Shown piece by piece: positions 13,158-35,233 of a stretch of DNA of 53,266 bases. Every line of letters starts with the position of its first letter. Position 1 is the stretch's first letter. The notes beneath the pieces were generated by a model. That model worked only from the letters and a program-made list of their open reading frames with translations. It searched no databases and was not told where the DNA came from. Location of the stretch: positions 1-53,266 of the IMG/VR virus record IMGVR_UViG_3300032307_000452; one strand, 5' to 3'. Origin of the DNA: a virus. A program made the translations under genes and the position numbers.

Positions 13158-16100
13158 TTAACTATCGAAGAAAATACCTAAAATTTGATTTAGTGGTGCG
13201 AATGCTCCTGTTAGTTTGTAAGTATTACCATTATATACAAATACAATACCTTCATTTGGTACAATTTTTTCAAATCCACCCAAAGCGTTTAATCGTTGTA
13301 ATTCTAATTTTAGTTTTTCAACTTTTTTAGGGTCACCACTTGCTTTTACTTGAGATATTGTTGATTGTAAACGAGCTACCATTTGTCTTTTGGCAGAATC
13401 AGGATTTGCCGTAAGTACAGATTCCATAAATGATAAAACATCAGCACCAACACCTAAAAATATCTCCTCAAATCTCATTAGATTTTGTTTTGATATCTTT
13501 TGTTGGTCTTGCTTATCTATTTGTTCAGCCCATGCCCTTAATTTAGGGTCTTGTATTGTTGCTATTCTAAATGATTTATCACCAAATGCCCATCTCTTAA
13601 CTAATCCTATTTTTTCTTGTGCATCCAATTTCTTCCCATCCTTTTCTACAAATTTACTCCACCAAGCCTGATGATATTCAGCTACCCCATCATTATCAGA
13701 TAATCCAAATTCAGATTGTAATTTAGAAATCATTCCCAAATACTTTCCTTGTAATTTAGCTAATTGTTCTGATTTTGGTAACTTAGTCATTGGTGGTCCT
13801 TGTATTGTGTACTTAGATTGAACATGTGCGTTTACCTGCTTAATCATTCCACCTAATATAGATGCAGCTTGTTGATTTTCACCAATTATATTACCAGCAT
13901 CATCATACTCAAACGTACCATGAAATACTAATAGAGGTTGATTGTATGGAATTACATTTACCGAAGTTGGATATATTACTTCCAAATTCATAAAACATGC
14001 ACCATCCTTAAAAATCTTTTGTCTTTGTGGTTCTGATAGGGCTGCTATTGCTTTCGATAAATCTTGCATAGCGAAGTTGTAAGCATCGGTTAATCCACCT
14101 CTACCAGCAAACTTATCTGCTACTTGTCCAATGGTCATAGCACCAGCTCCTTTGCTCTTTAGATGTGATTTGTTACGAGCTGCAACTAATCTACCATTTA
14201 CCCAACTAACTGCCAATGCCTGTCCATCAGTCTTCTCTCTAGTCAATTCCAAATCACCATTAAGTGCTTTAGTTACAATTGTTTTAAGGTCACCAAATGT
14301 AAGGTTCATTTCAATATCAAATGGGTGATTCATGTGACCATAAGCCCCACCTTCTAATAATAAAGATTCATTTATTGATTCTTTTTTCAAACTTCTTTTT
14401 TGAAGAACCAATTGATTAATTTGAGAAAATATATCTGCAATATCTTTATCTAATTTCTTTTCATCTGCACTCATCGGAGATTCGATATCAACATTTGAAT
14501 AAAGTTTTTTCTTTTTTGCAATTAATATCTCTGCTTTTTTAAGTAAATCAGATTTAACTTTATCTAAATCCTTTAAGATTTCAGATGAAGTAGCTTCAGT
14601 TACAGTTTCAAATGCGGATGGCGTTTTGATTTTTCTCCAACCACCACCAGGTGTTCTAAATATTCTAGCAGGTATTGGTAAAGTAGAACCTATTGGCAAT
14701 TGTCTTTCATATCCCTTATCAACGTGTATAATTTTGGTTATGAATTGTTTTGTTTTATTATCAGAACCAACCAATTCAACTTCCACATTTACAGTTCTTC
14801 CACCTACTTTCATTTTACCAGCAAATAATTGTCCTTTTATAAATGCTTCTTTTAAAAAATCAGTTGGAGATTTTAAATCATATTTTCTAATACGATTATA
14901 TTTGTCTACTACATCATTATGTGTATCTATTGGTAAACCTTGGTCTATTGCTTGTTTCTTTTCTCTTTCACTTGGAATTTCATCAAAAAAATCCCAACCG
15001 TCTAATCCATCTAAATAATATTTTTGATTATCATAATCTTCCCAATCGGAGTTCCATATATATCCAGTAGTAGTATTACCATCCAATGGAAATGCACCAT
15101 TGCCAGTAGCTTCCTCTACCGGTTTATATTCTTCACTACCATCACCATTTAATTTAGATTTTAATTTCTTAGTATCTTTTGAATCCGGTGCTCCATTGAT
15201 ATATCCACCAGGTAAAGATACCCCCACACCGGCTCCACCACCCAATCCCATTTCATCTAGCATTTGAGCTTCCACTTCATCTATAATTTCATTTATATCT
15301 TCTTTTGAAATTATTTGTGGTTTTTGATTTTTAGGAAGTTCCCAAAATCTTTTAGGTTTTTTTTCTGGATTTGTTCTATATATTTCTTCCCAATCTTCTA
15401 CCTTATGTGGGTCATCAGCTGGATTTAATGTACTTTGCACTACATTCTTAATCTTATAATACGCTTTTCTAAATTGAGTTTCGGTATCTTTTCCCTTACC
15501 TCTACCTCTCATAGAATCTGCTTTTGGTATATCCAATTGAGTATATCCACCTTGCTTATACCAATTTTCAGGTTTAGCTGTATTTAGTATTCGTTTTTGT
15601 CCATCCCCAACAAATGACATATCGGGCTCATCACCAGCTGTCATACCAGCATTACTAGCAGCTTCTTTTAATTCCTCTTTTTTAGGAATTCTAAATGTTA
15701 CAGCTTTCTTACCATTGATTGTTGGCATTCCCCATTCATCAGTACCAATCGATTTAACAATAACTTTTTTATTTTTAAATTTACCCATTAAAATTTGGTC
15801 ACCAACCTTAACATTCAATTTGATTTCTTCATTAATACACTCTTTTAATTTCTTTAATTTAAGAGTAATTAATTTGAATATTTGGTCATCAAACTTTGGA
15901 TATGCTTTTGTGAAATTCTTTTTTCTTTCTTCTTCACTACCAGCACTCAACCAATAACGAACATCAGTACCACTAATTGCATTAGGTTGAGCAGGTGCAG
16001 CATAGACATATCCTTTATCTAAATAAGGTTCTTCTACTTTACCTTTATATGGAGTGAAATATTTACCACTTAAACGTGATGAATCCTTTTCACCTACAAC

Positions 16101-16439
16101 AGTTATAAAACCAGTTGTATCTGAATCGTATTTATTAAGTATTTCTTGTGGAGCGTATGGGTTTTTGATTTGTACTATCTTATTCGAAGGAATACCAAAC
16201 ATTTTTTGCATGATGGCTTTCTTTTCTTTAAACCCAAATGGAGATTTTTTATTATCGGTTACATCGGAAGTTCCTATATAAACATTATCCCTTCCGAACT
16301 TCTTAACTAAATGGTCATAAGTTGCGTAATGGCCCTTATGAAATGGTTGAAAGCGGCCGGAATAGACAACAACTACTTTGTCCATCTCTGCCGCTTCTCC
16401 CAATATTGTTTCTACCAAAAATTTTGCTAATCCCATCAT
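13158..16439 (-). CDS. Giant fusion: HIGH-type nucleotidyltransferase + ATP-ligase-like domain (possible head-packaged polyprotein)
   Basis: A 1093-residue multi-domain protein. Residues 20-200 are a nucleotidyltransferase of the NMNAT/cytidylyltransferase type: VVVYSGRFQPFHKGH with HKGH at 34-37, and ISGTDVR at 155-161, like the ISxTxxR signature of NMN/phosphopantetheine enzymes. Residues about 208-252 look like a small beta-barrel (KVGDQILMGKF). The middle, 260-690, is low-complexity or unrecognised. Residues 697-1093 resemble nucleic-acid ligases: Lys736 in KTDG (nucleotidyl-lysine motif I), Arg755, NLEVIYP near 818-824 with LLVFHG 836-841, EGIVF 1063-1067 (motif IV) and YKLTG 1074-1078 (motif V). 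Leu/Ile-x-Glu before Ala/Gly occurs at 13-16, 257-260, 529-532 and 694-697, near domain borders. Substrates are unknown. Confidence 0.75.
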   Translation of the reverse strand: MMGLAKFLVETILGEAAEMDKVVVVYSGRFQPFHKGHYATYDHLVKKFGRDNVYIGTSDVTDNKKSPFGFKEKKAIMQKMFGIPSNKIVQIKNPYAPQEILNKYDSDTTGFITVVGEKDSSRLSGKYFTPYKGKVEEPYLDKGYVYAAPAQPNAISGTDVRYWLSAGSEEERKKNFTKAYPKFDDQIFKLITLKLKKLKECINEEIKLNVKVGDQILMGKFKNKKVIVKSIGTDEWGMPTINGKKAVTFRIPKKEELKEAASNAGMTAGDEPDMSFVGDGQKRILNTAKPENWYKQGGYTQLDIPKADSMRGRGKGKDTETQFRKAYYKIKNVVQSTLNPADDPHKVEDWEEIYRTNPEKKPKRFWELPKNQKPQIISKEDINEIIDEVEAQMLDEMGLGGGAGVGVSLPGGYINGAPDSKDTKKLKSKLNGDGSEEYKPVEEATGNGAFPLDGNTTTGYIWNSDWEDYDNQKYYLDGLDGWDFFDEIPSEREKKQAIDQGLPIDTHNDVVDKYNRIRKYDLKSPTDFLKEAFIKGQLFAGKMKVGGRTVNVEVELVGSDNKTKQFITKIIHVDKGYERQLPIGSTLPIPARIFRTPGGGWRKIKTPSAFETVTEATSSEILKDLDKVKSDLLKKAEILIAKKKKLYSNVDIESPMSADEKKLDKDIADIFSQINQLVLQKRSLKKESINESLLLEGGAYGHMNHPFDIEMNLTFGDLKTIVTKALNGDLELTREKTDGQALAVSWVNGRLVAARNKSHLKSKGAGAMTIGQVADKFAGRGGLTDAYNFAMQDLSKAIAALSEPQRQKIFKDGACFMNLEVIYPTSVNVIPYNQPLLVFHGTFEYDDAGNIIGENQQAASILGGMIKQVNAHVQSKYTIQGPPMTKLPKSEQLAKLQGKYLGMISKLQSEFGLSDNDGVAEYHQAWWSKFVEKDGKKLDAQEKIGLVKRWAFGDKSFRIATIQDPKLRAWAEQIDKQDQQKISKQNLMRFEEIFLGVGADVLSFMESVLTANPDSAKRQMVARLQSTISQVKASGDPKKVEKLKLELQRLNALGGFEKIVPNEGIVFVYNGNTYKLTGAFAPLNQILGIFFDS

Positions 16440-16469: not shown

Positions 16470-16859
16470 TTATTCTTTTACAACTTTCATCCCTTCAGAT
16501 GATTGCTGCATTTGTTGTTGTGCTAATTGCTTACGTGTTGGTGCACCTGGTTGATATTGAATTGTTCCATTTTGTAAATCAATTCTACCTTGTGGGTATT
16601 TTTCATCCAATGCATCAATTACTTCTTTAAGTTCACCATTTAACATTTTAAATTCATCTTCACCCTTTTCTAAGAAATCATCCATTCTAACAAGTTCTTC
16701 GTTCATTTCTTTTTTACGAATATGAATTTGTCCAAATTCTAAAATTAAATTTTGAATCTTTTGATTAATATCTGTGATAGATTTCAATGTTTCTGCCTCA
16801 ATTTTAGCAGTTTCTATCGTAATTTGTTGTTGTGTAGGTACATTATCTAAACCTGCCAT
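16470..16859 (-). CDS. Coiled-coil protein, paralogue of 21383-21640, function unknown
   Basis: A 129-residue protein. Residues 10-85 are helical and heptad-rich. It ends with the compact block VIDALDEKYPQGRIDLQNGT (about 85-104) and a Gln-rich tail. The same block occurs in the gene at 21383-21640 (ILADLNQKYPNGEIDLVEGT), and both proteins place it after a similar coiled coil, so they are paralogues. Together they bracket the glycosylation cassette. No enzyme motif is seen. A virion accessory or chaperone role is possible because they adjoin the tail-fibre gene, but nothing in the sequence proves it. Confidence 0.6.
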   Translation of the reverse strand: MAGLDNVPTQQQITIETAKIEAETLKSITDINQKIQNLILEFGQIHIRKKEMNEELVRMDDFLEKGEDEFKMLNGELKEVIDALDEKYPQGRIDLQNGTIQYQPGAPTRKQLAQQQMQQSSEGMKVVKE

Positions 16860-16881
16860 AGTATTTAAGTTTTATTGTTTT

Positions 16882-16897
16882 GTATATATAAGTATAT
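16882..16897 (-). promoter_or_regulatory. AT promoter motif identical to that at 13125-13140
   Basis: The minus strand reads ATATACTTATATATAC about 22 bases before the start at 16859. It is an exact 16-base copy of the element before the zinc-ribbon/gp17 genes. Confidence 0.5.
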
Positions 16898-16903
16898 TCT
16901 TTT

Positions 16904-17644
16904 TTATTTTTTGAACACAGAAACTCCTTTTTGTTTTACAACTTCACCAGCACAATAGTTAGCCCAATCAATCGATATTCCAATATCAGCCGAATCCAAA
17001 TATCGAGCTACAAATCCAGCAACAAAAGTATCACCTGCTCCACTAACATCTGCATTTTCAATAGGTGTAACCGGATATGTTGTATGTTTATATATTGTTC
17101 CCATCTTATCAATTGTGCGTATGATTTTATCAAACAACCAATCGTTATCTCGTATCACATCTTTACTAACTTCCCATTCCAACCGGTTCACCTTAATGAA
17201 TTTCAAATCCTTACACCAATCTCCCAATTTCTTTTTGGTATCTAAAATAACAAATGGATGCATAGATGCTATATGAGATATATCTTCTTCTGTTAAAAAT
17301 CCTTTGCAATAATCTGAAATTATAATCGCATCGTATTGAGATATATCGGATAATTTGGATATATCAATTCTACTAACCGAATCGTTTTCATCCACTCTTA
17401 AATAAAGTTCGTTTGTATCTTTATTAACATAACGAGTCTTCACAATACTACCATTATCAGAAAATATATTTGTTTCAACTCCCATTCCTCTTAAATTGTT
17501 TACAACATTTGATGCCATACCCAATCCATAGGTTTCATTAATTGGAATAAAAACAGGCCCATTTCCTTCCGGAGATTTACGTTTTGATGTACCATATACG
17601 AAAATATCAGTACAACTTTCTCCTATAACTAATACTTTATTCAT
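16904..17644 (-). CDS. PfkB-family sugar kinase, HldE kinase-domain-like
   Basis: Ribokinase/PfkB-fold kinase resembling the N-terminal domain of HldE (RfaE domain I), which phosphorylates D-glycero-D-manno-heptose 7-phosphate at O1. The start KVLVIGESCTDIFVYG is the family beta-strand opening. SPEGNGPVFIPI corresponds to the SPEAPVPV segment of HldE, followed by GLGMASNVVNNL where HldE has GGAANVAxNL. The ATP/anion-hole signature GAGDTF is at 202-207, with catalytic Asp205. At 246 residues it is shorter than HldE domain I (about 315), so part of the lid or C-terminal lobe is reduced. Its first eight bases overlap the nucleotidyltransferase gene, whose product would use its 1-phosphate. The exact sugar is inferred from context. 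Confidence 0.8.
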   Translation of the reverse strand: MNKVLVIGESCTDIFVYGTSKRKSPEGNGPVFIPINETYGLGMASNVVNNLRGMGVETNIFSDNGSIVKTRYVNKDTNELYLRVDENDSVSRIDISKLSDISQYDAIIISDYCKGFLTEEDISHIASMHPFVILDTKKKLGDWCKDLKFIKVNRLEWEVSKDVIRDNDWLFDKIIRTIDKMGTIYKHTTYPVTPIENADVSGAGDTFVAGFVARYLDSADIGISIDWANYCAGEVVKQKGVSVFKK

Positions 17645-18023
17645 CGTCTAAAAGTTTTGTAGTACTAAACCCTTCTATTTTATTGAAAAATTTTATTTCT
17701 TTTGCATGGTTACCACCAATAATAGGTTTATACATATATTCATCTCCAATTACAAATATATCAGGCTTGTAAGTTTCTAAATGTTTTCTTAAAGATTCAT
17801 CACTATCAAATACTACAATTTTATCAACATCCTTTATTTGCAGTAAATTAAATACTCTTTGTCCTTCGGTGTGAAAAGGTCTACCTTCACCTTTCATTTG
17901 TTTAATTCGTTCATCTGAATCAATACCTATCATTAAATCTCCTAAAGATTTTGCATAATCTATTAATTTAAAATGCCCATAGTGTAGAACATCAAAACAA
18001 CCATTTATCCAAACCTTTTTCAT
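17637..18023 (-). CDS. HldE-type nucleotidyltransferase (sugar-phosphate adenylyltransferase)
   Basis: A 128-residue single-domain cytidylyltransferase-fold enzyme like the C-terminal half of HldE (RfaE domain II), which makes ADP-heptose from heptose 1-phosphate and ATP. Motifs are VWINGCFDVLHYGHFKL with HYGH at 14-17, IGIDSDERIKQMKGEGRP (about 33-50), VVFDSD, IFVIGDEY and the closing GFSTTKLL at 118-125, equivalent to the EGYSTT end of HldE. Glycerol-3-phosphate cytidylyltransferase is the main alternative, but the KGEGRP and STT features and the neighbouring HldE-like kinase favour heptose. The gene overlaps the heptosyltransferase stop by one base and the kinase start by eight. Confidence 0.82.
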   Translation of the reverse strand: MKKVWINGCFDVLHYGHFKLIDYAKSLGDLMIGIDSDERIKQMKGEGRPFHTEGQRVFNLLQIKDVDKIVVFDSDESLRKHLETYKPDIFVIGDEYMYKPIIGGNHAKEIKFFNKIEGFSTTKLLDDE

Positions 18024-19180
18024 TATAAGAATTTTTCTAATTCTTTGATTACCATTTCAGATGTAATACTTTTAGTACACTCAAATTGCCTTTCAGTACC
18101 TTTATGGTCAGGACACCAATTCCAATCACCAGGATCCAATCTAAGTCTATTAAAGCAACCTTCACATTTTCCTTTTGGTGCAGCGATTCTTATACAATCT
18201 TGCATTTCAGCCCAATCGTATGAGAATCCACTAATCAATACAGTTGGAACATTTAATCCCCAACTTAACCAACTCAATCCACTACCAATACCAATAAATG
18301 CTTTTGATTTTAGCATTTCATCCATAACTAATTCCAATGGTCCATTTGGATGTTTTATAATACCTGTTGGTAATTTATTACCCATATAGTTATCACCCTC
18401 TTTAGATAATAATTTTACTGTATATCCTCTATTGTTTAACCAATCAACAACATCTTGCCACCCATTTGGATTATTCCAAAATTTAGATTGTGCAGTACCA
18501 TGAATTCCAATACATACTTGTTTATAATTTGGGTCTATAAATGGTGCTCTTTCTTTTAGTTTAGGTTTTATTTCTTTATACTCCAATCCTAAAATATCGG
18601 AACACATTTTTTGCATAGTTTGTGTTTTCGGGTCTATTGGATTTTTATAAATGTTAATTGTATTATCTTCATTATAAAATAAACCTATTGCATACATTGC
18701 ATATAAGTTTTCTACATTTGTGCCAGGAGATACAAATTCTATATCTGGATATCTACTTTCAAACATAGAATTCATAAAAGTAGAAACAACCATTTTACAA
18801 TTATGAACTTTTCCAAATTCTTCAACGTATGGTATCCATGCTAAACTATCTCCCAATGCTTTTGAATCTAATGCAACATAAACTCTTTTATTTTCAGGAT
18901 TATATAAATGTTCAAACCAAAGTTTTCCGTTTTCATATATTTCAATCTTCCATTCTATAAAATATTCTAAACTACATTTAGTCCACATATTATTACATAT
19001 AGAAGTGTTATATAGAATTCTTCCGTTTTTATTATTTATAAATTTAACAACATATTCTGCTTGTCTATTTCCTTTAATTTCAACAAAAGCACCTCTTACA
19101 AAATGAAAATAAACTTTATTATCAATTTCAAATTTATTATTTATATTTTTAATTAAATTATCGTAAATCATTAATTCCAA
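18023..19180 (-). CDS. Protein O-heptosyltransferase of the TibC/Aah (BAHT) type
   Basis: A 385-residue GT9-related enzyme resembling bacterial autotransporter heptosyltransferases, which move heptose from ADP-heptose to serines of autotransporter proteins. Order: N-terminal beta domain (FVRGAFVEIKG, about 28-38), then VYVALDSKALGDSLAWIPYVEEF (about 100-122), GLFYNEDN, DILGLEYKEIKPKL, IGIHGTAQSKFWNNPNGWQ (about 225-243), FIGIGSGLSWLSWGLNVPTV (about 297-316), ISGFSYDW, and a four-cysteine finger Cys339, Cys342, Cys356, Cys368 (CEGC, NWC, FEC). In TibC this finger binds iron. The end HKGTERQFECTKSIT is very characteristic of the family. It overlaps both neighbours. An LPS heptosyltransferase role is less likely because of the finger. 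Confidence 0.82.
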   Translation of the reverse strand: MELMIYDNLIKNINNKFEIDNKVYFHFVRGAFVEIKGNRQAEYVVKFINNKNGRILYNTSICNNMWTKCSLEYFIEWKIEIYENGKLWFEHLYNPENKRVYVALDSKALGDSLAWIPYVEEFGKVHNCKMVVSTFMNSMFESRYPDIEFVSPGTNVENLYAMYAIGLFYNEDNTINIYKNPIDPKTQTMQKMCSDILGLEYKEIKPKLKERAPFIDPNYKQVCIGIHGTAQSKFWNNPNGWQDVVDWLNNRGYTVKLLSKEGDNYMGNKLPTGIIKHPNGPLELVMDEMLKSKAFIGIGSGLSWLSWGLNVPTVLISGFSYDWAEMQDCIRIAAPKGKCEGCFNRLRLDPGDWNWCPDHKGTERQFECTKSITSEMVIKELEKFL

Positions 19181-21342
19181 GTTTTAACTGTTAAATCCAA
19201 TAGTGAGTATCCTTCTGCCTGTTTACTATACATTTTATTTGTAGTATATCGTTTCATAGGATGGTGATAGAATACATGATTAAACCAAAGGTCACCAACA
19301 TCCCAACCACAATCGTTCAATCGGTCCATCCACCATCCTTTAGTTCGGTTTGGTATTAGATAACAATGTGCAAGGTCTTGATTGTGTGCAGTTTGTGAAA
19401 ATAACTCATCAACTTTTATTTTTTCTCTTGATGGGTTATCTGCTAATGAAATAAAATACACATCATCTCTTTCTGATATGAAACATGCTTTGTGTACTAT
19501 ATTAACAAACTCCTCTAAACCAGTGTAAATAAATGCATCAGCTTCGAATATTAAAGTGTAATCATAATTTTCTTCATCTATGGTTTCTAATGCATTTCTA
19601 TGTGCCAAATAACATCCATAATGTCTACCAGTCATCCAACCCAAACCAGCACCAGGGTATAATTCACCTGGTTTATTATCTTTACTAATATGTTCAGGTC
19701 TTCTACAATTTTCAGCAGGTGCTAATCCTTCATAAACCTCATTTACAATTGGTTGATAATCTATTCCGTATTTTGATAATTGTTGTAATGATTGTATAGA
19801 AACCCTTTCCCTCATATCATCAGGTCTAGTCAGCATGTGTTTTACTTGTATTCTTGGTTTTTTTCTTACAAATGAACGAAACCCTTGCTGAAATTGTCCA
19901 TAAAAATATTCGTTTGCTGCTCTCGTAACTCCTTCAAATACACCATAATCATCACCACTAATAATACCACCCGGCTTTACTTTATTATACCAAACTTGCA
20001 AGTCTTCCATTAAGGCATCGTATGAATGCCCAGCATCAATCATAATAAAATCAATACTACTATTTGTAAAATTATTAGATGCGTTTTTGGATGTATCTTT
20101 TATTGTATTAAATTTATTATAGTTATCAGATAATACTGTGTTATCTACGAACTCATAAAATATATCACCATTAAAAGTATTAACTATATTTTGATGTAAT
20201 TGTTCATCATCAGTCCCTTTCCACGTATCAATAGATGTGAAATTAATATCCTTACCAGATTCTTTTATTTTTGTTGCTAAATGATTTGTAGATTTACCAA
20301 ACCATGCCCCAACTTCTACAAATGTTTCACCACCAACTGCCGAATCAACTACATTATTATATAATTCAGAATACGCAAACCAACCAGGTATTTCGTTAAA
20401 TTCAGGTTGTAACTTCTCTAAAATAATTCTTTTAGTTAATTTCAAATCATCATCTATATAAGTAACTAATTCATTATTATCGTATGTATCTAAATAAGTG
20501 TGTAATTTTCTGAATATAGATGGTAGTTTGTAACTCAATGCTTCTTTAACTGATAATGGATTTAATTCTAACTTAGAACTAAAATAAAACATATCACTTG
20601 CTGCATAAAACGTATCTACATCATTTCGTTCACCCCATATAATACAATTATCAGGTTTGAATTCCATCAATGGTTTCCAATAGTTTTCAAAGTTCATAGC
20701 TTGGTTTCCCACAAAATGAAATTTAATTTTATATTTTTCCAATTGCCTAGCTATTTGAAATATTTCAGCTTGATTCTTACCAGGTGAAAATAATCCAACC
20801 ATCAATATATGTTTCCAATCGGATTCAAACCCTAATTCAGTTTTAGCCAATTGCTTATCAAATTCATATTCTTCTATTGGATATTCCCATATTTGAGTTT
20901 CAATTCCCAATGTATCAAATCTTTGCTTACTCCATTCGGATACTAATACATATCTATCAGGATGATATACTATTTCGGATGGATTTGTAAACGAACCATG
21001 TGTTGATGCTACTATAAAATAGTTTCTATCTTTTGAAAATAATTTTTCAACTATATCAATTGGTAAGTCAAATTCAGGTATTTCTTGAAAGTGAATAATA
21101 TTTGGTTGAAATGTTCTAATAACATCAAATATTGCACGTTTGTTATCACCTAAAGTATGAACAGGTACTAATGATTTAATTCTATTTTTTTGAACTACAT
21201 ACGCATCTCCACCACTATTATTTATTTCAACAACTTCTATTTCAAAATCGTTTATAAAGTGTTTTATTTGTTTGTATGTGTATTGTGGTTGTCCGCCCGT
21301 AGAAAGATGTGGACAGACATAAAGTAACTTTTTCTTTGCCAT
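19171..21342 (-). CDS. Three-domain glycosyltransferase (GT4) - methyltransferase - GT25-like fusion
   Basis: A 723-residue protein from the ATG at 21342; in-frame codons further upstream are excluded because the promoter -7 box lies at 21350-21357. Residues 1-335 are a GT-B glycosyltransferase (GT4): LLYVCPHLSTGGQPQYT, ILMVGLFSPGKNQ (about 203-215) and a late KLELNPLSVKEALSY (about 281-295, the E-x7-E region). Residues 345-500 are a class I SAM methyltransferase of the Methyltransf_24 type: FVEVGAWFGKSTNHLA, SIDTWKG, IDFIMIDAGHSYDALMEDL and KPGGIISGDDY. Residues 515-723 look like a GT25-type sugar transferase (MTGRHYGCYLAHRNAL, YTLIFEADAFIY). Its stop overlaps the heptosyltransferase start by ten bases. 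It probably extends or methylates the heptose-based glycan; substrates are unknown. Confidence 0.78.
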   Translation of the reverse strand: MAKKKLLYVCPHLSTGGQPQYTYKQIKHFINDFEIEVVEINNSGGDAYVVQKNRIKSLVPVHTLGDNKRAIFDVIRTFQPNIIHFQEIPEFDLPIDIVEKLFSKDRNYFIVASTHGSFTNPSEIVYHPDRYVLVSEWSKQRFDTLGIETQIWEYPIEEYEFDKQLAKTELGFESDWKHILMVGLFSPGKNQAEIFQIARQLEKYKIKFHFVGNQAMNFENYWKPLMEFKPDNCIIWGERNDVDTFYAASDMFYFSSKLELNPLSVKEALSYKLPSIFRKLHTYLDTYDNNELVTYIDDDLKLTKRIILEKLQPEFNEIPGWFAYSELYNNVVDSAVGGETFVEVGAWFGKSTNHLATKIKESGKDINFTSIDTWKGTDDEQLHQNIVNTFNGDIFYEFVDNTVLSDNYNKFNTIKDTSKNASNNFTNSSIDFIMIDAGHSYDALMEDLQVWYNKVKPGGIISGDDYGVFEGVTRAANEYFYGQFQQGFRSFVRKKPRIQVKHMLTRPDDMRERVSIQSLQQLSKYGIDYQPIVNEVYEGLAPAENCRRPEHISKDNKPGELYPGAGLGWMTGRHYGCYLAHRNALETIDEENYDYTLIFEADAFIYTGLEEFVNIVHKACFISERDDVYFISLADNPSREKIKVDELFSQTAHNQDLAHCYLIPNRTKGWWMDRLNDCGWDVGDLWFNHVFYHHPMKRYTTNKMYSKQAEGYSLLDLTVKTWN

Positions 21343-21349
21343 ATTGTAA

Positions 21350-21381
21350 CAAATATACGAATTTATTTTTGAATTACCAAA
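21350..21381 (-). promoter_or_regulatory. Bacteroidota-type promoter of the glycosylation operon
   Basis: The minus strand reads TTTG (21381-21378), a 20-base spacer, then TATATTTG (21357-21350), an exact match to the Bacteroidota housekeeping consensus. The -7 box ends eight bases before the ATG at 21342, so the leader would be only a few bases long. The element lies at the end of the preceding small gene. Confidence 0.75.
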
Positions 21382-21382
21382 T

Positions 21383-21640
21383 TTATTTTTGATAAACCAC
21401 TGTACCCTCAACCAAATCAATTTCTCCGTTTGGATATTTTTGATTTAAATCCGCTAATATTGAATTTAATTCTTTATTTGCAGTAGAGTATTCAGATTCA
21501 ACAACTGCTATAATTTTTTTTATTTCAGCTATATCTAAATTCAATTGCCCAGCATTTACAATTAATTCGTTTTTGCGATTATTAAGTTCTTTTATTTTAG
21601 ATAAAACGCTTTCTTCTAATTTTTCGGTTTGTAATTCCAT
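21383..21640 (-). CDS. Small coiled-coil protein, paralogue of 16470-16859
   Basis: An 85-residue protein starting MELQTEKLEESVLSKIKEL. An upstream in-frame ATG would overlap the tail-fibre gene and put the AT promoter motif inside the coding sequence, so 21640 is preferred. Residues 5-60 are a coiled coil. Residues about 60-80 carry ILADLNQKYPNGEIDLVEGT, closely similar to the end block of 16470-16859. It lies between the large tail protein and the glycosylation operon. Function unknown. Confidence 0.65.
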   Translation of the reverse strand: MELQTEKLEESVLSKIKELNNRKNELIVNAGQLNLDIAEIKKIIAVVESEYSTANKELNSILADLNQKYPNGEIDLVEGTVVYQK

Positions 21641-21663
21641 AATTTTATTATTTATTGTTTGTA

Positions 21664-21673
21664 TATAAATATA
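21664..21673 (-). promoter_or_regulatory. Late-type AT promoter motif
   Basis: The minus strand reads TATATATTTATATACAAAC about 24 bases before the ATG at 21640. It overlaps no coding sequence (the tail gene ends at 21681). Confidence 0.5.
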
Positions 21674-21680
21674 TAAAAAT

Positions 21681-24600
21681 TTATAAAGAACCACTTATTT
21701 GTGCTTCTAATTGGTTTACTTTTTGAGATAATTCTTGCACAGCTTTCCACAATACAAATACTAATTCGGTTTTAGCAATACCAGATGTCATCCATTGTTT
21801 AGGTCCTTCTGGATTCTCTGGGTCTTCGAACCAATCATAATCTACGAATTCTTCAAATCCACCTGCTTCTAATTCTTCCGCAATTATACCTATTTGTTGA
21901 GGTCTTACTTCCGCATCCTTATCTACTTTCCAATAATAAGTTCGTATTGGTACATTATTTATACAATCTAATACAGATGGATGTTCCCAATTTTCAATTT
22001 CTTCCTTATATCTTCTTGCTGAAGTATTTCTACCCACCCTCCAAGTAGATAATGATATTTCCATACCTCTAATAGTACCACCACCAGGACCACTAACATT
22101 TGTTAATATAACAGCCGGTCTAAGTCCACCATCATTATAGGTTGTTATGTAACCAGGGCTACCAGTTGCAGTATTCCAAGAAAATTGACCCGTACCCATC
22201 TCAATATTATTACCATTGGTTACAAGCTTACCTGCTCCACTTGCAATATCAATAGCAGTACCTCCAGATGTTCCTGTTAATTGTATTGTGGTATTTGCTG
22301 TATCACCTTCTAGTGTAATAAATCCTTTTCCATTTAAAATTGGTATAGATGCAGAGTCCTCTCTCCTTAATCTAATAAATCTATTTTGTGATGTTGCTAT
22401 CTGAATACCTTTATTTGTTAATTCAACAACGTTTACGTTTGTAGCTGCTACAATTGCCGGAGTTGGTATGTATGCGTTTACAGCGAAAGAATATCCAGAC
22501 CCTAAGCTATATTGATATCCCTGAATTTTTACAAATAATTTAAAAACATAATCAGTAGCTGATGGATTTGGTGCACTAAATTGGAAGCTTCCTACATATC
22601 CATAAAAATTTGCATAACTTTCATCGAACCCACCATTCCAATAATCTGCAGCTACTGTAACCTCTTGTAGTATAGTTGTGGAAGTAGAATCATAAATTCG
22701 GTAACCCCAATAAATGTTTGCATATCCTTCTGCATTAAATGCTTGTATAACAGAATAAACGGATGGCCAAGAAACAGAAGAATCGGTATATGTACCAGCC
22801 GATACGTTGATTGTTTGACCTGAACTTTCCCATACTTCATCCAACGCATTTGGTAGAGATGGAGATGAATCATACGCAGATACAGCATCACTACTAAGGT
22901 TTATACCCGTTCCAGCCAAATCCGTTAATTCACCGAAGTTTACTTTAAGACGAGTTTCTCCACTTTCTCTAATTGCTATACCAGGAAGTGATGGGTCAAG
23001 GAAAATTCTACTACTAGCATCTCTAAGAATATTATTTTCAACAGTCCAACTACCAATAGAACCACCAGTTGCGTTAATTTGTCCAGATATAGTTGCATTA
23101 GAAACAACTAAACCACTAGCACCCAATGAAAAGTTAGGTCCTATTAAACTACCAGTTCCGTTTGCATCAGCTGTCAGAGAAATAGCAACAGCCGGACTTG
23201 TTCCAACCGTTACCGTATCGGTAAATGTACCAGTTGCTGCGGATATATTTCCTGCAAATGAACCATTAGCACCACTTATATCTCCCTTAAAGAATGCATT
23301 ACCAGATGTGTCTATGTAGAAATTTTTAGAGTGTATAGAACCTACTGCAGCTAATGTAATACCAGCTCCAGCATTAAAGCCTGAAGTATTTTTTGTACCA
23401 CTATAAATTGCATCACCTGCCAATTCCCAACCCCCAACAGTTCCATCATTGTGGTCATCTCCATTATCAAATGCACCAATCTTACCACCATCTCTAGCAG
23501 TTGCTACGTTTTTAATTCGTATGTTACCAGCAATTTCTAAAGCAGAACCATCCCACTTAAGATATCTATCACCTCCAGTATTTACAATAGAAAATCTACC
23601 AGTTGTACCACTTGCACCAGCTTCATATATTCCTAAGAAAATACCAGGTCTTTCATACCCAATAACAGCTCCACCAGGATTCAATGTTGTACCAGATGTA
23701 CCAGATGTTCCTACCGTTGCACTTTGTCCGATTGCAATATATGGGTCAGGTCTACCACCAGAAATTACAATGTTTGCAAATGCCCCAGTTCCATCTTTTG
23801 TACCAACATTAATTGTATTTTTAACATAAGACTCTTCAAATATTGCAATTTTAGCTGCTACGAAGAATTCTTGGTCACCTAAATATTCCCACCAATCATT
23901 AGTACCATCAACAGTTGGAGCATGGTAGTTTACTAACACACCATTTTGGTCATAAGTTGCAGGACCTGAACCACTAATTGCTGCATAATATTTTACAGTA
24001 TCTTGTGTTGCTAAATAAGTAACCGCATCTCTACGATTATTAGTAGTTTCAACTTGCCCTATATAATTAATAGTAGGGCTCCATTCACCTCTCATCACAA
24101 TACCAGGTCCAACTGCTCCTTCAAATTGAACTGATAAAGATTGTGTTTTAAAGAAAGTTTGTCTACCTTCACAATTTATCGCATATACTATTTCAGCTGT
24201 TGTGTTTGTTTCAGGATCATCCCATGCGGTAATACCAGGCATTGATGCAGGTGAGCCGGTTAATTTACTTCCTACAATTATATTATCATTATCTAAATGT
24301 ACATAATTTGGTTTTGATGTTACCTCTACTTGATATTGATATTCATAAGATGAACTACCATACGCATCTATTTGTACACCAGTAAATCCAGAAGGTTTAT
24401 TTGTTAATTCATAAGTACCTCTATATGCTCTTATTATATTTGAAGTAGTTCCCAATTCAACTTCACCAGACACTCTATATACAACAGATGAATTTTCATT
24501 TTGCATCTTAACATCATAAGGAGCAGGTTCGGTAAATTGAACTGCAAATGATTGTGTTATAAATTGAGTTTGTCTACTTGGAGGTCTACTAATAAAATCC

Positions 24601-27600
24601 GTTGCTACTTGATTTGAATAACCTTCGAAATCAATTTTATACACAATCTCACCTGTTTTATTAATAGCTGGTTTCTCCCAACCACTAATATCAGCCATAC
24701 CAGCAGGAGTTGTTGTTACTCTATTAGTTGGTAATGAAATCCAAGGTGATTTATAAAAAATAGATGCAGATGAATATCCTAAAATACCAATTAAGTTTTG
24801 TAAATAATCATAATCCGTATCTTGTGGTGCTGGATAATTTCCTGTTGTTACATTTATTAAAGATGTTGTACCTTTATATGTTGGTAATTTAATAGATGTT
24901 CCAGACAAATCAGTATCAAACAATTCTGCTTTAATCGATGTATTTTCATTTGTTGCTGCTATTTTATATGCATCAGCTCCAGCTTTAATACCGGCAATCG
25001 TTAATTGTCCTTCTGCTCTATATGGATTTAAAATAGAAGATGTATATGGATTACCATCGGTTATTTTTACTTTCCAAGTTTTATTTTCTTCAGGACCAGC
25101 AGCATCGGTACCTGGTATAAAGAATACTTTTTCAGTTATACCAGCTCCTTCAAAATAAGGTCCATCGTATAATGTTTCAGAACCATCAGTATCAACAAAA
25201 AATAAACTAAACCATGCAGAACCTGTTGTGTTAAATGCAGTTGCTTTTAATTCAACATCTCCTTCAGGTGAAACTCTATACCCATCCCTATCATAATTTA
25301 TTGTATATGGATTAGCTTTTAATTCTACAGTTCTAGCATTAGGTACTGATACATTCTTTGTAAACGTTTGAGTACGTGTATAGATAGATGATGTATATTC
25401 ATGCCCACTTCCTAATGCAAATGGATAAACTTGAATTGTATATACTGCACTTGCTGATACATACGGATAATCAAATCTATTGTAATTTATAGTTGCCGTA
25501 CTTAATGAAGATGACGAAAGTGAACCAGTTCTTATATTCCAAATAGAACCACCTCTAGTTTCAATTGAATTAATTCTCCAAGTACCAGGTGCTATCGATT
25601 GGGTTGTAAATCTTAAAAAATCTTCCCCTTCTTTTACTTGTATTGTTGTATTAGTTGGTGCATATCCCACAGGTGTTACAAATCCAACCTCATCCGCAGT
25701 TAATGTTGCATTTTGAGGTGTTATTAATATTTGAATTGGTGGAGGTCCTTCTAATACTTTAGTATAGTTTACAATTACACTTGCTGTATAAATCGAAGAT
25801 GTGTAATATGGATGAATAATTAATGGATACTCAATACTTCCACTCAAATCTGTCATATTTGATGAAGCACTTACGATTAATGATGCTGTGTATGGCGTTC
25901 CAAAGGATGATGTAAAATGTACATTACCTGCTTTAACTCTATTTTCTATTATTGAAGATGTTGCTATATAGAATGTACCATGTGTATCTAAATTATCCAA
26001 AACACCAGCACTAGAACTAAATGCTAAATACCTTGAACCCTGCTTTAATTTAATATCAGTTATAGATGGTACATAATCATTAACAATACCTCTTGAATTT
26101 GCACCTAAAGTTACAGCTATTGGATTTACTTCAAATACGATACTTTCATCACCTTGCTTACCTTCAGGAACAATTGTAAATGTTTTATCAATAGTAACCG
26201 ATGCCGATGTCCAAGGTTCAGTATATGTAAATGCTAATGTTAAAGTTTTAGTTTGATTTAAAGCACTTCGTACATTACCACTTATTACTTGTGATGGTAT
26301 TATATTTTTATTTTCATCAGTTGCAGAAACAGTTATGGTTGGATGTAAACTTTGTGTGTGATAATACATCCAATATTCAGGAACCCAATCTTTGTTGATT
26401 GACATTGATGGATATACCTGAAATGATGCTGTTACGGATTCGATTTCAGATGCCGCCGTTCCTCTTTTTGCAAAAGATGCCGTAGCAAATGCAAATGATG
26501 GTCTAAATGTTTTTTCTGTTCTTGGATTAATTGTGAATGAATCTACATTATATGTTATAATACCACTATCCAATCCATCCTGCAAATCTTCTAATATAAT
26601 AGATGCTACAACAGAGCCTGATGTTAAGTATGCAGGTCCACTTGCTGCAGATTGTGATGAAATCAAATATATTGTTCTTCTAAAATCAATCGAATCTCTA
26701 TTAAAAGTTGCGTTATAATTTATTTCCCCACTACCCAACGAACCAGTACTTAATCCATATATGTATCTACTTGATGATGCGTATTCTAAGTTTACAAACT
26801 TCTCAGCTCCATCTGCTGAGCGTGATATGATATGTAGTTGCTTATCAGGCCAACCCTTTTCAGGTTTTGTTGTACTACTTAATTCGATATCGTTTACACC
26901 ATCTATGCGAACTGCTTGTAATTCTAATGAAGCAGTACTACTATTTCTAATTTGAGTTCCTCTATAAGGTCTAATCAAATAGTTTACACCACCAAACCCA
27001 TCCAATACTCTACTGAATATTATTGTATCTGTAAAGCCTTCAACTTCACCAGTAATTTTAATTAATTGTACAGTCTTATCAGTTCTTGAACCTGTAAAGT
27101 TACCAACTGTCATTGTTGGTGCATCGGATGTAATATCACTAAGTAAGCCCGGATATCTTTGACCTGTAAATGATGCAGTATAATCAGAGCCAGATAATTC
27201 ATTTCCATCAAAATCAAAAGATTGAGATGTATATGTTACAGAACCAGTTAATAAATTTTTTGTTACTGTAAATCCTACCACAGTTGGTGGAACAGGTTGA
27301 GAACCAGAATCAAATTGAAATTGTAAAGAACGAGGAGTAAATACCAATCCTTTTTGTATTCTTTGTATATTACCTCCATTAAATGTTTTACTTTCTTCAA
27401 CTAAAACCGGAATGTAATTATTATTTATATCATAAAATTCAAATCTATAATCAAAAGTTTCTTCTGGTAAAGTTCTTGGAACAGTCTGAATAAATGTAAT
27501 TTCATCAGGTGAATATGCTGTTTCTTGTGAAGCTCTTAAACTAACATCCGATATATACCAATCGTTACCTTTAACTTCAAAATATAATTTTGTATTGTTA

Positions 27601-29024
27601 GATTCTTCAGCTTTGAAATTTGCAGTTATTTGATTTTTTTGTAATAAAGAATTATCAGATGTTACAGTTACAATATTTTTTTCTACTTGAACAATTGTAG
27701 GAGAACCATTAACACTACTGTTTTTAGAACCACTTAAAAATGCTCTTATATAATTATTTGGATTTACAGCACTAGTTCCAATACGTGTATTAAACGTAAG
27801 TGTATATTCTATATTTTTAGTAACACCTAAAGAAGCTGTTGTGTGGAAGTAATTAGAATCAATACTATCTAATTTTACTGAATTATATAAATAATTTTGA
27901 TTAAATGCAGTTGTAATATTATTTGATGCAGTAATCCAATAATTTTTAAAATTACTTGTATCAAAAATACCATAAAATTCTTCATTTTTTACTTGAGATT
28001 CCAAATCCCTAAGTATTTCATTTGATTCAAGTCTTATTTCTTGAATAAATTGATAATCTGCTAAATCCGATTGTGATTTTCTAAATATTTTTACCCTAGA
28101 AACATCTCCAACAAATGTAGTTAAATCGGAAAGTACAATTTTAGCAAATGAACCAGTCAATGCTGTTTTTAAATTGTTTACACCTTCTATATAATTAAAT
28201 GAGGCAGTATATCCTTCATCTAAAAAGTTTGCAACAATTGATGAACCAAGTGATGATGCTTCGGTATATGGATTTCTAACTAATACCTGTTTATTGTTTA
28301 TTACACTATCAACTACTGCATTATATCCTAATGCTGGTACATTAATACTATTACCAACTATTGAACCAGTCCAATTTGTTGAATCTTCAATTTCTAATAA
28401 ATACGTTGTTGGTGCATTGTAATCATTTATGGATTCTCCAAGCCTTGGTGCTTGTGCTTGACCACTTAATGAACCTGTTTGTACAACAATAGTTGTTACA
28501 TTATTAAAAATAGGTTTTACTATTTCGGTTATGGTAACTTCAGGTCTTCTGTAAAATCTTACTTTATCTTCATTTGATAATAATCTGTTTACTTTAAATT
28601 CCTTTTCCCATTTAACGTTGTAAACGTTTTTCCATTCTTCTGGTATTGGTAGTACTACACCACCTTCATCAATATAGGTTTTTAATTCACCTAATACCGT
28701 TATTTTAGCAGTACCAATTGGAGTATCTTCATAAACATAAACAGCAACTAATTTTGATGTACCTTCATAATATTCAGGAACACCATTACCTGGCTCATAA
28801 TAAATTGGATTGCCATTAACATCTAATATTTGAATCTTTATTTCAGTAGATTCCATAAGATGCTCCGAACCTTCAATCAAAAACCCATTTTTACCACCAG
28901 TGAATGTATCTTTAAATTCAGTTATTTTAAAATATGTTGAATTTGGATTAGTATCCACCAAAAATGTGCCAAACGATGTAAGTGGTTGGGTAAGATTTTC
29001 TGCGAATTTTTTTATTATTGCCAT
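21681..29024 (-). CDS. Giant tail-fibre/tip protein with C-terminal S74 intramolecular chaperone
   Basis: A 2447-residue, very Ser/Thr/Gly/Tyr-rich virion protein. The N-terminal 200 residues (MAIIKKFAENLTQPLTSFGT...) probably attach it to the tail. The centre holds several diverged beta-sandwich-like repeats, e.g. VNPIAVTLGANSRGIV, then ITPQNATLTADEVGFV, then ANPYTINYDRDGY, each about 120-200 residues apart. About 1650-2000 is tip- or fibre-like (FFVAAKIAIFEESYVKNTINV, GTSGTSGTTLNPGG). The last 113 residues are a Peptidase S74 chaperone: SARRYKEEI with Ser2335 and Lys2340, IGIIAEELE and a terminal coiled coil. Family members cut themselves just before this Ser after trimerisation. It adjoins the glycosylation cassette and is the likeliest acceptor for O-linked sugar (inference). 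Confidence 0.85.
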   Translation of the reverse strand: MAIIKKFAENLTQPLTSFGTFLVDTNPNSTYFKITEFKDTFTGGKNGFLIEGSEHLMESTEIKIQILDVNGNPIYYEPGNGVPEYYEGTSKLVAVYVYEDTPIGTAKITVLGELKTYIDEGGVVLPIPEEWKNVYNVKWEKEFKVNRLLSNEDKVRFYRRPEVTITEIVKPIFNNVTTIVVQTGSLSGQAQAPRLGESINDYNAPTTYLLEIEDSTNWTGSIVGNSINVPALGYNAVVDSVINNKQVLVRNPYTEASSLGSSIVANFLDEGYTASFNYIEGVNNLKTALTGSFAKIVLSDLTTFVGDVSRVKIFRKSQSDLADYQFIQEIRLESNEILRDLESQVKNEEFYGIFDTSNFKNYWITASNNITTAFNQNYLYNSVKLDSIDSNYFHTTASLGVTKNIEYTLTFNTRIGTSAVNPNNYIRAFLSGSKNSSVNGSPTIVQVEKNIVTVTSDNSLLQKNQITANFKAEESNNTKLYFEVKGNDWYISDVSLRASQETAYSPDEITFIQTVPRTLPEETFDYRFEFYDINNNYIPVLVEESKTFNGGNIQRIQKGLVFTPRSLQFQFDSGSQPVPPTVVGFTVTKNLLTGSVTYTSQSFDFDGNELSGSDYTASFTGQRYPGLLSDITSDAPTMTVGNFTGSRTDKTVQLIKITGEVEGFTDTIIFSRVLDGFGGVNYLIRPYRGTQIRNSSTASLELQAVRIDGVNDIELSSTTKPEKGWPDKQLHIISRSADGAEKFVNLEYASSSRYIYGLSTGSLGSGEINYNATFNRDSIDFRRTIYLISSQSAASGPAYLTSGSVVASIILEDLQDGLDSGIITYNVDSFTINPRTEKTFRPSFAFATASFAKRGTAASEIESVTASFQVYPSMSINKDWVPEYWMYYHTQSLHPTITVSATDENKNIIPSQVISGNVRSALNQTKTLTLAFTYTEPWTSASVTIDKTFTIVPEGKQGDESIVFEVNPIAVTLGANSRGIVNDYVPSITDIKLKQGSRYLAFSSSAGVLDNLDTHGTFYIATSSIIENRVKAGNVHFTSSFGTPYTASLIVSASSNMTDLSGSIEYPLIIHPYYTSSIYTASVIVNYTKVLEGPPPIQILITPQNATLTADEVGFVTPVGYAPTNTTIQVKEGEDFLRFTTQSIAPGTWRINSIETRGGSIWNIRTGSLSSSSLSTATINYNRFDYPYVSASAVYTIQVYPFALGSGHEYTSSIYTRTQTFTKNVSVPNARTVELKANPYTINYDRDGYRVSPEGDVELKATAFNTTGSAWFSLFFVDTDGSETLYDGPYFEGAGITEKVFFIPGTDAAGPEENKTWKVKITDGNPYTSSILNPYRAEGQLTIAGIKAGADAYKIAATNENTSIKAELFDTDLSGTSIKLPTYKGTTSLINVTTGNYPAPQDTDYDYLQNLIGILGYSSASIFYKSPWISLPTNRVTTTPAGMADISGWEKPAINKTGEIVYKIDFEGYSNQVATDFISRPPSRQTQFITQSFAVQFTEPAPYDVKMQNENSSVVYRVSGEVELGTTSNIIRAYRGTYELTNKPSGFTGVQIDAYGSSSYEYQYQVEVTSKPNYVHLDNDNIIVGSKLTGSPASMPGITAWDDPETNTTAEIVYAINCEGRQTFFKTQSLSVQFEGAVGPGIVMRGEWSPTINYIGQVETTNNRRDAVTYLATQDTVKYYAAISGSGPATYDQNGVLVNYHAPTVDGTNDWWEYLGDQEFFVAAKIAIFEESYVKNTINVGTKDGTGAFANIVISGGRPDPYIAIGQSATVGTSGTSGTTLNPGGAVIGYERPGIFLGIYEAGASGTTGRFSIVNTGGDRYLKWDGSALEIAGNIRIKNVATARDGGKIGAFDNGDDHNDGTVGGWELAGDAIYSGTKNTSGFNAGAGITLAAVGSIHSKNFYIDTSGNAFFKGDISGANGSFAGNISAATGTFTDTVTVGTSPAVAISLTADANGTGSLIGPNFSLGASGLVVSNATISGQINATGGSIGSWTVENNILRDASSRIFLDPSLPGIAIRESGETRLKVNFGELTDLAGTGINLSSDAVSAYDSSPSLPNALDEVWESSGQTINVSAGTYTDSSVSWPSVYSVIQAFNAEGYANIYWGYRIYDSTSTTILQEVTVAADYWNGGFDESYANFYGYVGSFQFSAPNPSATDYVFKLFVKIQGYQYSLGSGYSFAVNAYIPTPAIVAATNVNVVELTNKGIQIATSQNRFIRLRREDSASIPILNGKGFITLEGDTANTTIQLTGTSGGTAIDIASGAGKLVTNGNNIEMGTGQFSWNTATGSPGYITTYNDGGLRPAVILTNVSGPGGGTIRGMEISLSTWRVGRNTSARRYKEEIENWEHPSVLDCINNVPIRTYYWKVDKDAEVRPQQIGIIAEELEAGGFEEFVDYDWFEDPENPEGPKQWMTSGIAKTELVFVLWKAVQELSQKVNQLEAQISGSL

Positions 29025-35149: not shown

Positions 35150-35164
35150 CTAAGTTTTGATTTT

Positions 35165-35176
35165 ATATAAATATTC
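35165..35176 (-). promoter_or_regulatory. Late-type AT promoter motif
   Basis: The minus strand reads GAATATTTATATAAAATC about 16 bases before the ATG at 35149 and directly after the terminator at 35183-35209. Confidence 0.5.
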
Positions 35177-35182
35177 TTTAAA

Positions 35183-35209
35183 TAAAAAACCCCCATTATA
35201 TGTGGGGGT
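35183..35209 (-). terminator. Strong intrinsic terminator after gene 35234-36472
   Basis: ACCCCCA (35189-35195) and TGGGGGT (35203-35209) form a GC-rich seven-base stem with a seven-base loop. In minus-strand sense it is followed by TTTTTATT. It is the most obvious GC-rich hairpin in the window. Confidence 0.85.
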
Positions 35210-35233
35210 CTTTCATATTATATTATTTTCTAA

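What the first reader, a model, noticed from the sequence alone, without database searches (positions are those of the whole stretch)
16470..21640. Phage-encoded protein heptosylation cassette
A TibC/Aah-type heptosyltransferase (18023-19180), an HldE-like adenylyltransferase (17637-18023) and an HldE-like PfkB kinase (16904-17644) are translationally overlapped with a GT4/methyltransferase/GT25-like fusion. The heptosyltransferase has the four-cysteine finger and the HKGTERQFECTKSIT end typical of autotransporter heptosyltransferases. Established knowledge: such enzymes use ADP-heptose to modify serines of autotransporters. Inference: the phage makes its own donor, from host sedoheptulose-7-phosphate isomerase product, and heptosylates a virion protein, which would be a new use of this enzyme family. 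Phosphatase, isomerase and epimerase steps are not in the window and would be borrowed or replaced.
Basis: partly seen in the sequence, partly recalled or inferred. Interest (0 to 1): 0.93.

Follow-up and report, generated by a model that had tools for sequence, protein, structure and literature searches.

The report
Phage enzyme for sugar-coating fibre repeats
A virus of freshwater bacteria carries a relative of an enzyme known for attaching a seven-carbon sugar (heptose) to bacterial adhesion proteins, and gene neighbourhoods in many phages and several bacteria suggest that this branch decorates collagen-like Gly-Ser/Thr-Ser/Thr repeats, in phages those of their fibres, which nobody appears to have tested.

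Summary
ORF 18023-19171(-) is a TibC/Aah-type enzyme: TIGR04414 277 bits (cut-off 200); predicted fold TM 0.86 to TibC, 0.40-0.55 to LPS heptosyltransferases; catalytic Asp and four iron cysteines invariant in 121 relatives. It is translationally coupled to a GT4/methyltransferase/GT25-like fusion and HldE-like genes. At least 549 IMG/VR stretches encode relatives; the HldE-like pair is optional (51 of 111 loci).

New here: phage enzymes and some bacterial ones form a sister clade to TibC-type enzymes (100/98). This clade is linked to collagen-like (Gly-[Ser/Thr]-[Ser/Thr])n tracts instead of autotransporter repeats. Methylomonadaceae: 7/9 genomes with the enzyme have tracts, 2/142 without (p = 4e-9). 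Viral contigs chosen by a tract carry the enzyme in 19/35, random contigs in 1/26. In four bacterial genomes every tract match lies within 6 kb of the gene. Inference: phage fibre tracts are O-glycosylated, probably with heptose.

Caveats: TibC's adenine-contacting Arg is replaced, the donor pathway is incomplete, the window itself holds only GTSGTSGTT, and nothing biochemical was shown.

The parts
18023..19171 (-). TibC/Aah-type O-glycosyltransferase, 382 aa (ATG start; the mechanical ORF starts at TTG 19180)
   Evidence: TIGR04414 277 bits over cut-off 200; 4rap E 2.7e-52; AlphaFold pLDDT 92.4, Foldseek TMq 0.86 to TibC
18077..18166 (-). iron-finger segment, Cys336/339/353/365 in 382-aa numbering
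   Evidence: invariant in alignments A1, A2 and in 121 relatives; aligned with the TibC iron ligands 339/342/358/370 (PMC4358343)
17637..18023 (-). HldE-C-like nucleotidyltransferase, 128 aa
   Evidence: TIGR02199 95.6 bits, under cut-off 181.5; PF01467 2e-19; PHROG 7878; present with the kinase in 51, alone in 3, absent in 57 of 111 loci
16904..17644 (-). HldE-N-like PfkB sugar kinase, 246 aa
   Evidence: TIGR02198 91 bits, under cut-off 345; PfkB 1.8e-11; PHROG 8133; cyanophage homologues beside phosphoheptose isomerase
19171..21342 (-). GT4 - methyltransferase - GT25-like fusion, 723 aa
   Evidence: PF00534, PF13578, weak PF01755; TAATG overlap with the transferase gene
19174..19842 (-). 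GT25-like C-terminal domain of the fusion
   Evidence: AlphaFold pLDDT 89.6; best PDB matches human COLGALT1 E 2.7e-8, TMq about 0.64, and mimivirus R655
21383..21694 (-). small coiled-coil-like protein, up to 103 aa, paralogue of 16470-16859; conserved at cassette border
   Evidence: 30% identity over 89 aa to the other copy; recurs next to the transferase in distant phages
16470..16859 (-). small coiled-coil-like protein, 129 aa, second border paralogue
21681..29024 (-). 2447-aa tail-fibre-like protein with a C-terminal S74 chaperone domain, directly upstream of the cassette
   Evidence: PF13884 4e-7; homologues in 49 of the loci scanned, at the same place
23685..23711 (-). GTSGTSGTT, the only Gly-[ST]-[ST] run of two or more triplets found on the coding strand of the window

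Best explanation
The 382-aa protein is a cytoplasmic TibC-fold, iron-finger protein O-glycosyltransferase of a sister subfamily to the autotransporter heptosyltransferases. During infection it transfers heptose (most likely from ADP-D,D-heptose) to Ser/Thr of collagen-like Gly-[Ser/Thr]-[Ser/Thr] tracts in the phage's own long fibre proteins before assembly. The coupled GT4/methyltransferase/GT25-like fusion extends and methylates that first sugar. Where present, the HldE-like kinase and adenylyltransferase raise the supply of the nucleotide sugar from host heptose phosphate, and the host supplies the isomerase and phosphatase steps. Shown: enzyme family, predicted fold, catalytic and iron residues, coupling, synteny, and the clade's statistical and positional linkage to the tracts. 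Inferred: acceptor, donor identity, extension, and the effect (a stiff, hydrated, protease- or antibody-shielded fibre stalk).
For: Family and fold. D110, K230, W305 and four Cys equivalents kept in at least 120 of 121 relatives (roles from PMC4358343). Tree: all phage rows and the tract-linked bacteria split from TibC-type enzymes at 100/98. Tracts beside the gene in many phage lineages and beside bacterial chromosomal genes, in proteins with signal-peptide- or lipobox-like starts. Whole-genome scans: every tract match in the Schekmanbacteria (9.2 Mb), gammaproteobacterium (3.8 Mb), Arenicellales (2.3 Mb) and Polaromonas (2.6 Mb) genomes lies within about 6 kb of the gene, and 14 of 16 in Methylomicrobium within 1 kb. 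Methylomonadaceae 7/9 versus 2/142, Fisher 4e-9; the three genomes with only TibC-type enzymes have none. Viral contigs chosen by tract: 19/35 have the enzyme; random contigs 1/26 (p 2e-5), and that one is the only random contig with a tract. Window clade: the 274-kb record G016 has tract-rich ORFs, the nearest about 18 kb downstream of the gene, where the window would just have ended; L126's genome has a 3353-aa fibre-like protein full of tracts. TibC-type relative L103 is instead followed by a strand-loop-strand repeat protein.
Against: No biochemistry or virion proteomics. The window has only one short run, GTSGTSGTT, not conserved in related S74 fibres. G003 (133 kb, same clade) and huge phage LR756504 (636 kb) have the enzyme but no 4-triplet tract; two enzyme-bearing Methylomonadaceae genomes have none. 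TibC Arg286, which contacts adenine and is needed for activity, is Val/Ile/Leu in most of this clade, so another nucleotide sugar is possible. GmhA was clearly found in only one of 25 phage records searched, with one weak sub-threshold match elsewhere. Viral contigs are related to each other, so those p-values overstate independence.
Confidence: 0.62

Rival explanations
1. Same enzyme and acceptor class, but the donor is not ADP-heptose: with Arg286 lost, the clade uses another nucleotide sugar and the kinase/adenylyltransferase pair makes a modified one.
For: Arg286 is kept in 7/7 TibC-type enzymes but replaced in most of this clade, and TibC Pro300 is Gly; both donor enzymes score far below the HldE equivalog cut-offs; most phages of the clade lack the pair nearby.
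Against: Thr226, Lys230 and Trp305 equivalents, which bind phosphate and heptose O4, are conserved; HldE domains are the best-scoring NCBIfam models for the pair; cyanophage homologues sit next to phosphoheptose isomerase.
Confidence: 0.2
2. The enzyme modifies another virion part, in the window's phage the adjacent 2447-aa S74 fibre or the baseplate, and the tract link only reflects both genes living in fibre modules.
For: The S74 fibre gene is directly upstream in the window clade; the window lacks long tracts.
Against: In bacterial chromosomes, outside fibre modules, the gene still lies beside tract proteins.
Confidence: 0.2
3. The cassette changes host LPS or another surface glycan to block superinfection, as usually assumed for phage 'heptosyltransferases'.
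For: A huge-phage heptosyltransferase was read this way (PMC10747093); GT4 and GT25 families include LPS enzymes; donor genes are HldE-like.
Against: Fold and phylogeny are TibC-type, not WaaC/WaaF; the catalytic and iron-finger residues of a protein-modifying family are kept; the gene sits among virion genes.
Confidence: 0.08

Closest known systems
TibC / Aah, bacterial autotransporter heptosyltransferases (TIGR04414; PDB 4rap, 4rb4; PMC4358343)
   Same: Fold (TM 0.86), N-terminal beta domain, four-Cys iron finger, catalytic Asp110, Thr226/Lys230/Trp305; gene linked to a repeat-rich exported protein
   Different: Sister clade; Arg286 to Val/Ile/Leu and Pro300 to Gly; linked to Gly-[ST]-[ST] tracts instead of strand-loop-strand repeats; phage-borne, often fused to other glycosyltransferase or methyltransferase domains
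HldE (RfaE) kinase and adenylyltransferase; cyanophage adenylyltransferase-kinase pair (P-SSM2, S-SM2, P-TIM68)
   Same: Domain families and, in P-SSM2, gene order; cyanophages carry a 32-45% identical pair, in P-SSM2 beside phosphoheptose isomerase and tail-fibre genes
   Different: Separate short proteins well below equivalog cut-offs; optional; no TibC-like gene was found in those cyanophages
GT25 collagen galactosyltransferase (COLGALT1) and mimivirus relatives
   Same: Best fold match of the fusion's C-terminal domain; collagen-like acceptors
   Different: 13-15% identity, TMq about 0.64; GT25 also holds LPS enzymes; acceptor would be Ser/Thr or a first sugar, not hydroxylysine
BclA-type glycosylated collagen-like region of Bacillus spores (PMC8968730)
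   Same: Collagen-like spore protein that carries glycans
   Different: Different organisms and sugars; no TibC-like enzyme known to me there
Glycosylated mycobacteriophage virions
   Same: Phage-encoded glycosyltransferases proposed to modify capsid protein (PMC11256854)
   Different: Different transferases, hosts and acceptors

Membership tests
TIGR04414 / BAHT (autotransporter heptosyltransferase) | Sequence score above the curated cut-off | tested here: met
   277.3 bits against 200
TIGR04414 / BAHT (autotransporter heptosyltransferase) | Beta-barrel plus GT-B fold as in TibC | tested here: met
   Model pLDDT 92.4; 4rap TMq 0.86 over 373 columns; next GT9 enzymes 0.40-0.55
TIGR04414 / BAHT (autotransporter heptosyltransferase) | Four iron-finger cysteines | tested here: met
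   Invariant in 121 relatives
TIGR04414 / BAHT (autotransporter heptosyltransferase) | Catalytic Asp110 and ligand residues Thr226, Lys230, Trp305 | tested here: met
   roles from PMC4358343
TIGR04414 / BAHT (autotransporter heptosyltransferase) | Adenine-contacting Arg286 | tested here: not met
   Val in the window; Arg in only 8 of 121 of the clade, 7 of 7 in TibC-type enzymes. Hence described as a sister subfamily, not filed as an autotransporter heptosyltransferase
TIGR04414 / BAHT (autotransporter heptosyltransferase) | Linked autotransporter / strand-loop-strand acceptor | tested here: not met
   No NCBIfam repeat match in the two large fibre-like proteins; tracts instead in relatives; L103 of the TibC-type clade does have such a neighbour
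TIGR04414 / BAHT (autotransporter heptosyltransferase) | Dodecamer and heptose transfer activity | not testable with these tools
   Needs protein
HldE-type ADP-heptose synthesis | Equivalog-level kinase and adenylyltransferase | tested here: not met
   91 against 345 bits and 95.6 against 181.5 bits
HldE-type ADP-heptose synthesis | GmhA isomerase in the same phage | tested here: inconclusive
   Of 25 records searched, one clear match, in huge phage LR756504; most records are fragments
LPS heptosyltransferase (GT9, WaaC/WaaF) | Closer to WaaC/WaaF than to TibC | tested here: not met
   PF01075 20.7 bits, under its cut-off 22; TIGR02193 25 against 185; structures 0.40-0.55
GT25 glycosyltransferase (fusion C-terminus) | Pfam GT25 score above cut-off | tested here: not met
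   18 against 24 bits, although the fold matches GT25 best

The most novel reading that the evidence does not exclude
A widespread, so far unrecognised branch of iron-finger TibC-like enzymes, mostly phage-borne, O-glycosylates collagen-like Gly-[Ser/Thr]-[Ser/Thr] tracts, giving phages (and some methanotrophs and other bacteria) fibres or lipoproteins with dense sugar side chains; it would be the first dedicated enzyme family for such prokaryotic collagen-like tracts.
Probability: 0.6. Interest if true: 0.88.

Novelty: new variant of a known kind. Interest (0 to 1): 0.8.

Why it matters
It gives a concrete, cheaply testable enzyme-substrate pair for glycosylation of phage fibres in a large group of uncultured, mostly freshwater phages, and for the abundant but unexplained Gly-Ser/Thr repeats in their structural proteins. 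If true, it explains how proline-poor collagen-like stalks could be stiffened or protected, adds a new acceptor class to a structurally known enzyme family, corrects the habit of reading phage 'heptosyltransferases' as LPS genes, and offers an enzyme for decorating designed repeat proteins.

Tried and rejected
LPS heptosyltransferase reading: rejected by fold, profile scores and tree. Autotransporter-type repeats in window fibre proteins: none found. Complete ADP-heptose pathway in the phage: GmhA searched in 25 records, one clear match; GmhB not searched, because HAD phosphatases are too ambiguous. Short GTSGTSGTT of the S74 fibre as a conserved acceptor: not conserved in the clade. A second family test in Comamonadaceae (301 genomes): only the known genome has the phage-type enzyme, so no contingency table was possible. 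A Bacteroidota-type promoter (TTTG-N17-23-TANNTTTG) occurs 5 times, just as expected by chance, though one copy lies right before the fusion gene's ATG. Paper searches found no report of TibC-like enzymes in phages or of heptosylated collagen-like tracts; most subscription papers are not held, so absence there is not proof.

Full report
What is in the window. The window is an IMG/VR virus record of a T4-like phage, with terminase, portal, head protease, gp46/47, primase and baseplate homologues, 32% G+C. Its terminase is closest to Flavobacterium phage immuto (56%) and Microcystis phage Mel-JY01 (54%), so a Bacteroidota host is likely but not shown. On the - strand, in order of transcription: a 2447-aa S74 fibre, a small coiled-coil-like protein, a GT4/methyltransferase/GT25-like fusion, the TibC-like enzyme, an HldE-C-like nucleotidyltransferase, an HldE-N-like kinase, and a second coiled-coil-like paralogue. 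Junctions overlap as TAATG twice and by 8 nt once, as expected for coupled translation.

The enzyme. It passes the curated TIGR04414 cut-off (277 against 200 bits), matches TibC over 354 residues, and its predicted structure (pLDDT 92.4) matches TibC at TM 0.86, with the LPS enzymes WaaC and WaaF and another GT9 structure at 0.40-0.55. Residues shown by others to matter in TibC (PMC4358343) were checked in 121 relatives: Asp110, Lys230, Trp305 and the four iron cysteines are kept (Lys230 in 120 of 121), and Thr226 is Thr or Ser. Arg286, which hydrogen-bonds adenine N1 and whose replacement cripples TibC, is Val in the window and Arg in only 8 of 121; Pro300 is Gly. So the chemistry and the finger are preserved, but nucleotide recognition may differ.

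How widespread. In the window clade the order fibre - coiled coil - fusion - enzyme - [nucleotidyltransferase - kinase] - coiled coil - nucleotidyltransferase-domain protein - terminase - portal is conserved. The bracketed pair is present in 51 of 111 loci, absent in 57, and reduced to the nucleotidyltransferase in 3. More distant phages often have the enzyme fused behind GT4 or methyltransferase domains; Mel-JY01 has a 1227-aa fusion annotated only as FkbM methyltransferase. The pair has homologues in marine cyanophages, in P-SSM2 beside phosphoheptose isomerase and tail-fibre genes.

The tract association. While reading the neighbours of Mel-JY01 and huge phage LR756501 I saw long collagen-like proteins made of GTS and GSS triplets. 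A neighbour survey showed Gly-X-Y proteins beside the enzyme in many phage lineages, and Ser/Thr-rich tract proteins, several with signal-peptide- or lipobox-like starts, beside bacterial chromosomal copies. This was then tested. (a) A whole-genome pattern of four Gly-[ST]-[ST] triplets: in the Schekmanbacteria, gammaproteobacterium, Arenicellales and Polaromonas genomes every match lies within about 6 kb of the gene, and in Methylomicrobium 14 of 16 within 1 kb; the reversed-pattern control gave almost none. Three further MAG hits, L096, L097 and L102, look like phage contigs. (b) In 151 Methylomonadaceae genomes, 9 have the phage-type enzyme and 7 of these have real tracts, against 2 of 142 others (Fisher 4e-9); I discounted matches whose codons are stops, Cys or Arg. 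In 7 genomes a tract protein lies within about 1 kb of the gene. Three genomes with only a TibC-type enzyme have no tract. (c) Viral contigs chosen by a seven-triplet pattern: 19 of 35 (40 kb or longer) encode the enzyme. Contigs chosen by an arbitrary 14-mer: 1 of 26, and that contig is the only one of the 26 with a tract. (d) Enzyme-bearing viral contigs not chosen for tracts: 10 of 24 short ones and 17 of 19 mostly larger records have tracts, against 0 of 25 random contigs without the enzyme. Some of the 19 had already shown tracts near the gene, and related contigs are not independent, so (c) and (d) are weaker than their p-values; (a) and (b) rest on distinct genomes.

Phylogeny. TibC, the Gluconobacter, Rhodospirillales and Selenomonadaceae enzymes and the three tract-free Methylomonadaceae enzymes split from all 43 phage or tract-linked rows with 100/98 support. 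The Rhodospirillales gene is followed by a protein of strand-loop-strand repeats (by eye, not by profile). Two sister clades thus appear tied to two kinds of repeat acceptor.

The window's own acceptor. The window has only GTSGTSGTT. In its clade the tracts lie elsewhere: in the 274-kb record G016 the nearest tract ORF ends about 18 kb downstream of the enzyme gene and 9 kb beyond the portal gene, which would fall just past the window's left edge; further tract ORFs follow at about 40-62 kb and 110 kb. In L126's genome they belong to a 3353-aa fibre-like protein. G003 (133 kb) has none, so the rule is not absolute.

The fusion. The C-terminal domain's predicted fold has human collagen galactosyltransferase COLGALT1 as best PDB match (E 2.7e-8, TMq about 0.64). 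GT25 also includes LPS enzymes, so this supports an additional transferase, not by itself a collagen role.

Mechanism and status. Shown: family, predicted fold, residues, coupling, conserved synteny, linkage to tracts. From established work on TibC: an iron-containing dodecamer transfers heptose from ADP-D,D-heptose to Ser of repeat proteins (PMC4358343). Inferred: here the acceptor is Ser/Thr of Gly-[ST]-[ST] tracts, the sugar is probably heptose, the fusion extends it, and the optional pair boosts the donor. Known parallels are the glycosylated collagen-like BclA of Bacillus spores and modified mimivirus collagen (PMC8968730). No paper found in the held library describes TibC-like enzymes in phages or links them to such tracts.

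Noticed in passing
16470-16859 and 21383-21694: Two paralogous small coiled-coil-like proteins with a shared KYPxGxIDLxxGTxxYQ end flank the cassette, and similar about 84-aa proteins follow the enzyme in distant phages; role unknown.
   Followed up: partly
L109, L112, L118: The kinase is lost while the nucleotidyltransferase is kept, so the two donor steps are separable.
   Followed up: partly
L082 (PP395634.1) 739-2298: In Microcystis phage Mel-JY01 the annotated CDS on the - strand lies antisense to the long Gly-Ser/Thr tract, an apparent misannotation; the tract frame is open on the + strand.
   Followed up: partly
13158-16439: 1093-aa protein with an N-terminal nucleotidyltransferase-like domain, conserved between cassette and terminase in the clade and in Mel-JY01.
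   Followed up: no
L172 (LR756504.1 430122-430517): A 636-kb huge phage encodes a GmhA-like isomerase about 27 kb from its TibC-like gene, yet has no 4-triplet tract.
   Followed up: no
G241 34605-35657: A contig drawn by a random 14-mer carries the enzyme inside a 2265-aa open frame, together with 124 tract matches.
   Followed up: no
L169 (P-SSM2): Cyanophage adenylyltransferase-kinase pair between a carbamoyltransferase and phosphoheptose isomerase, flanked by tail-fibre genes; may be a related virion glycan pathway with another transferase.
   Followed up: no
21350-21381: TTTG-N20-TATATTTG, the Bacteroidota promoter shape, right before the fusion gene's ATG; the number in the whole window equals chance.
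   Followed up: partly
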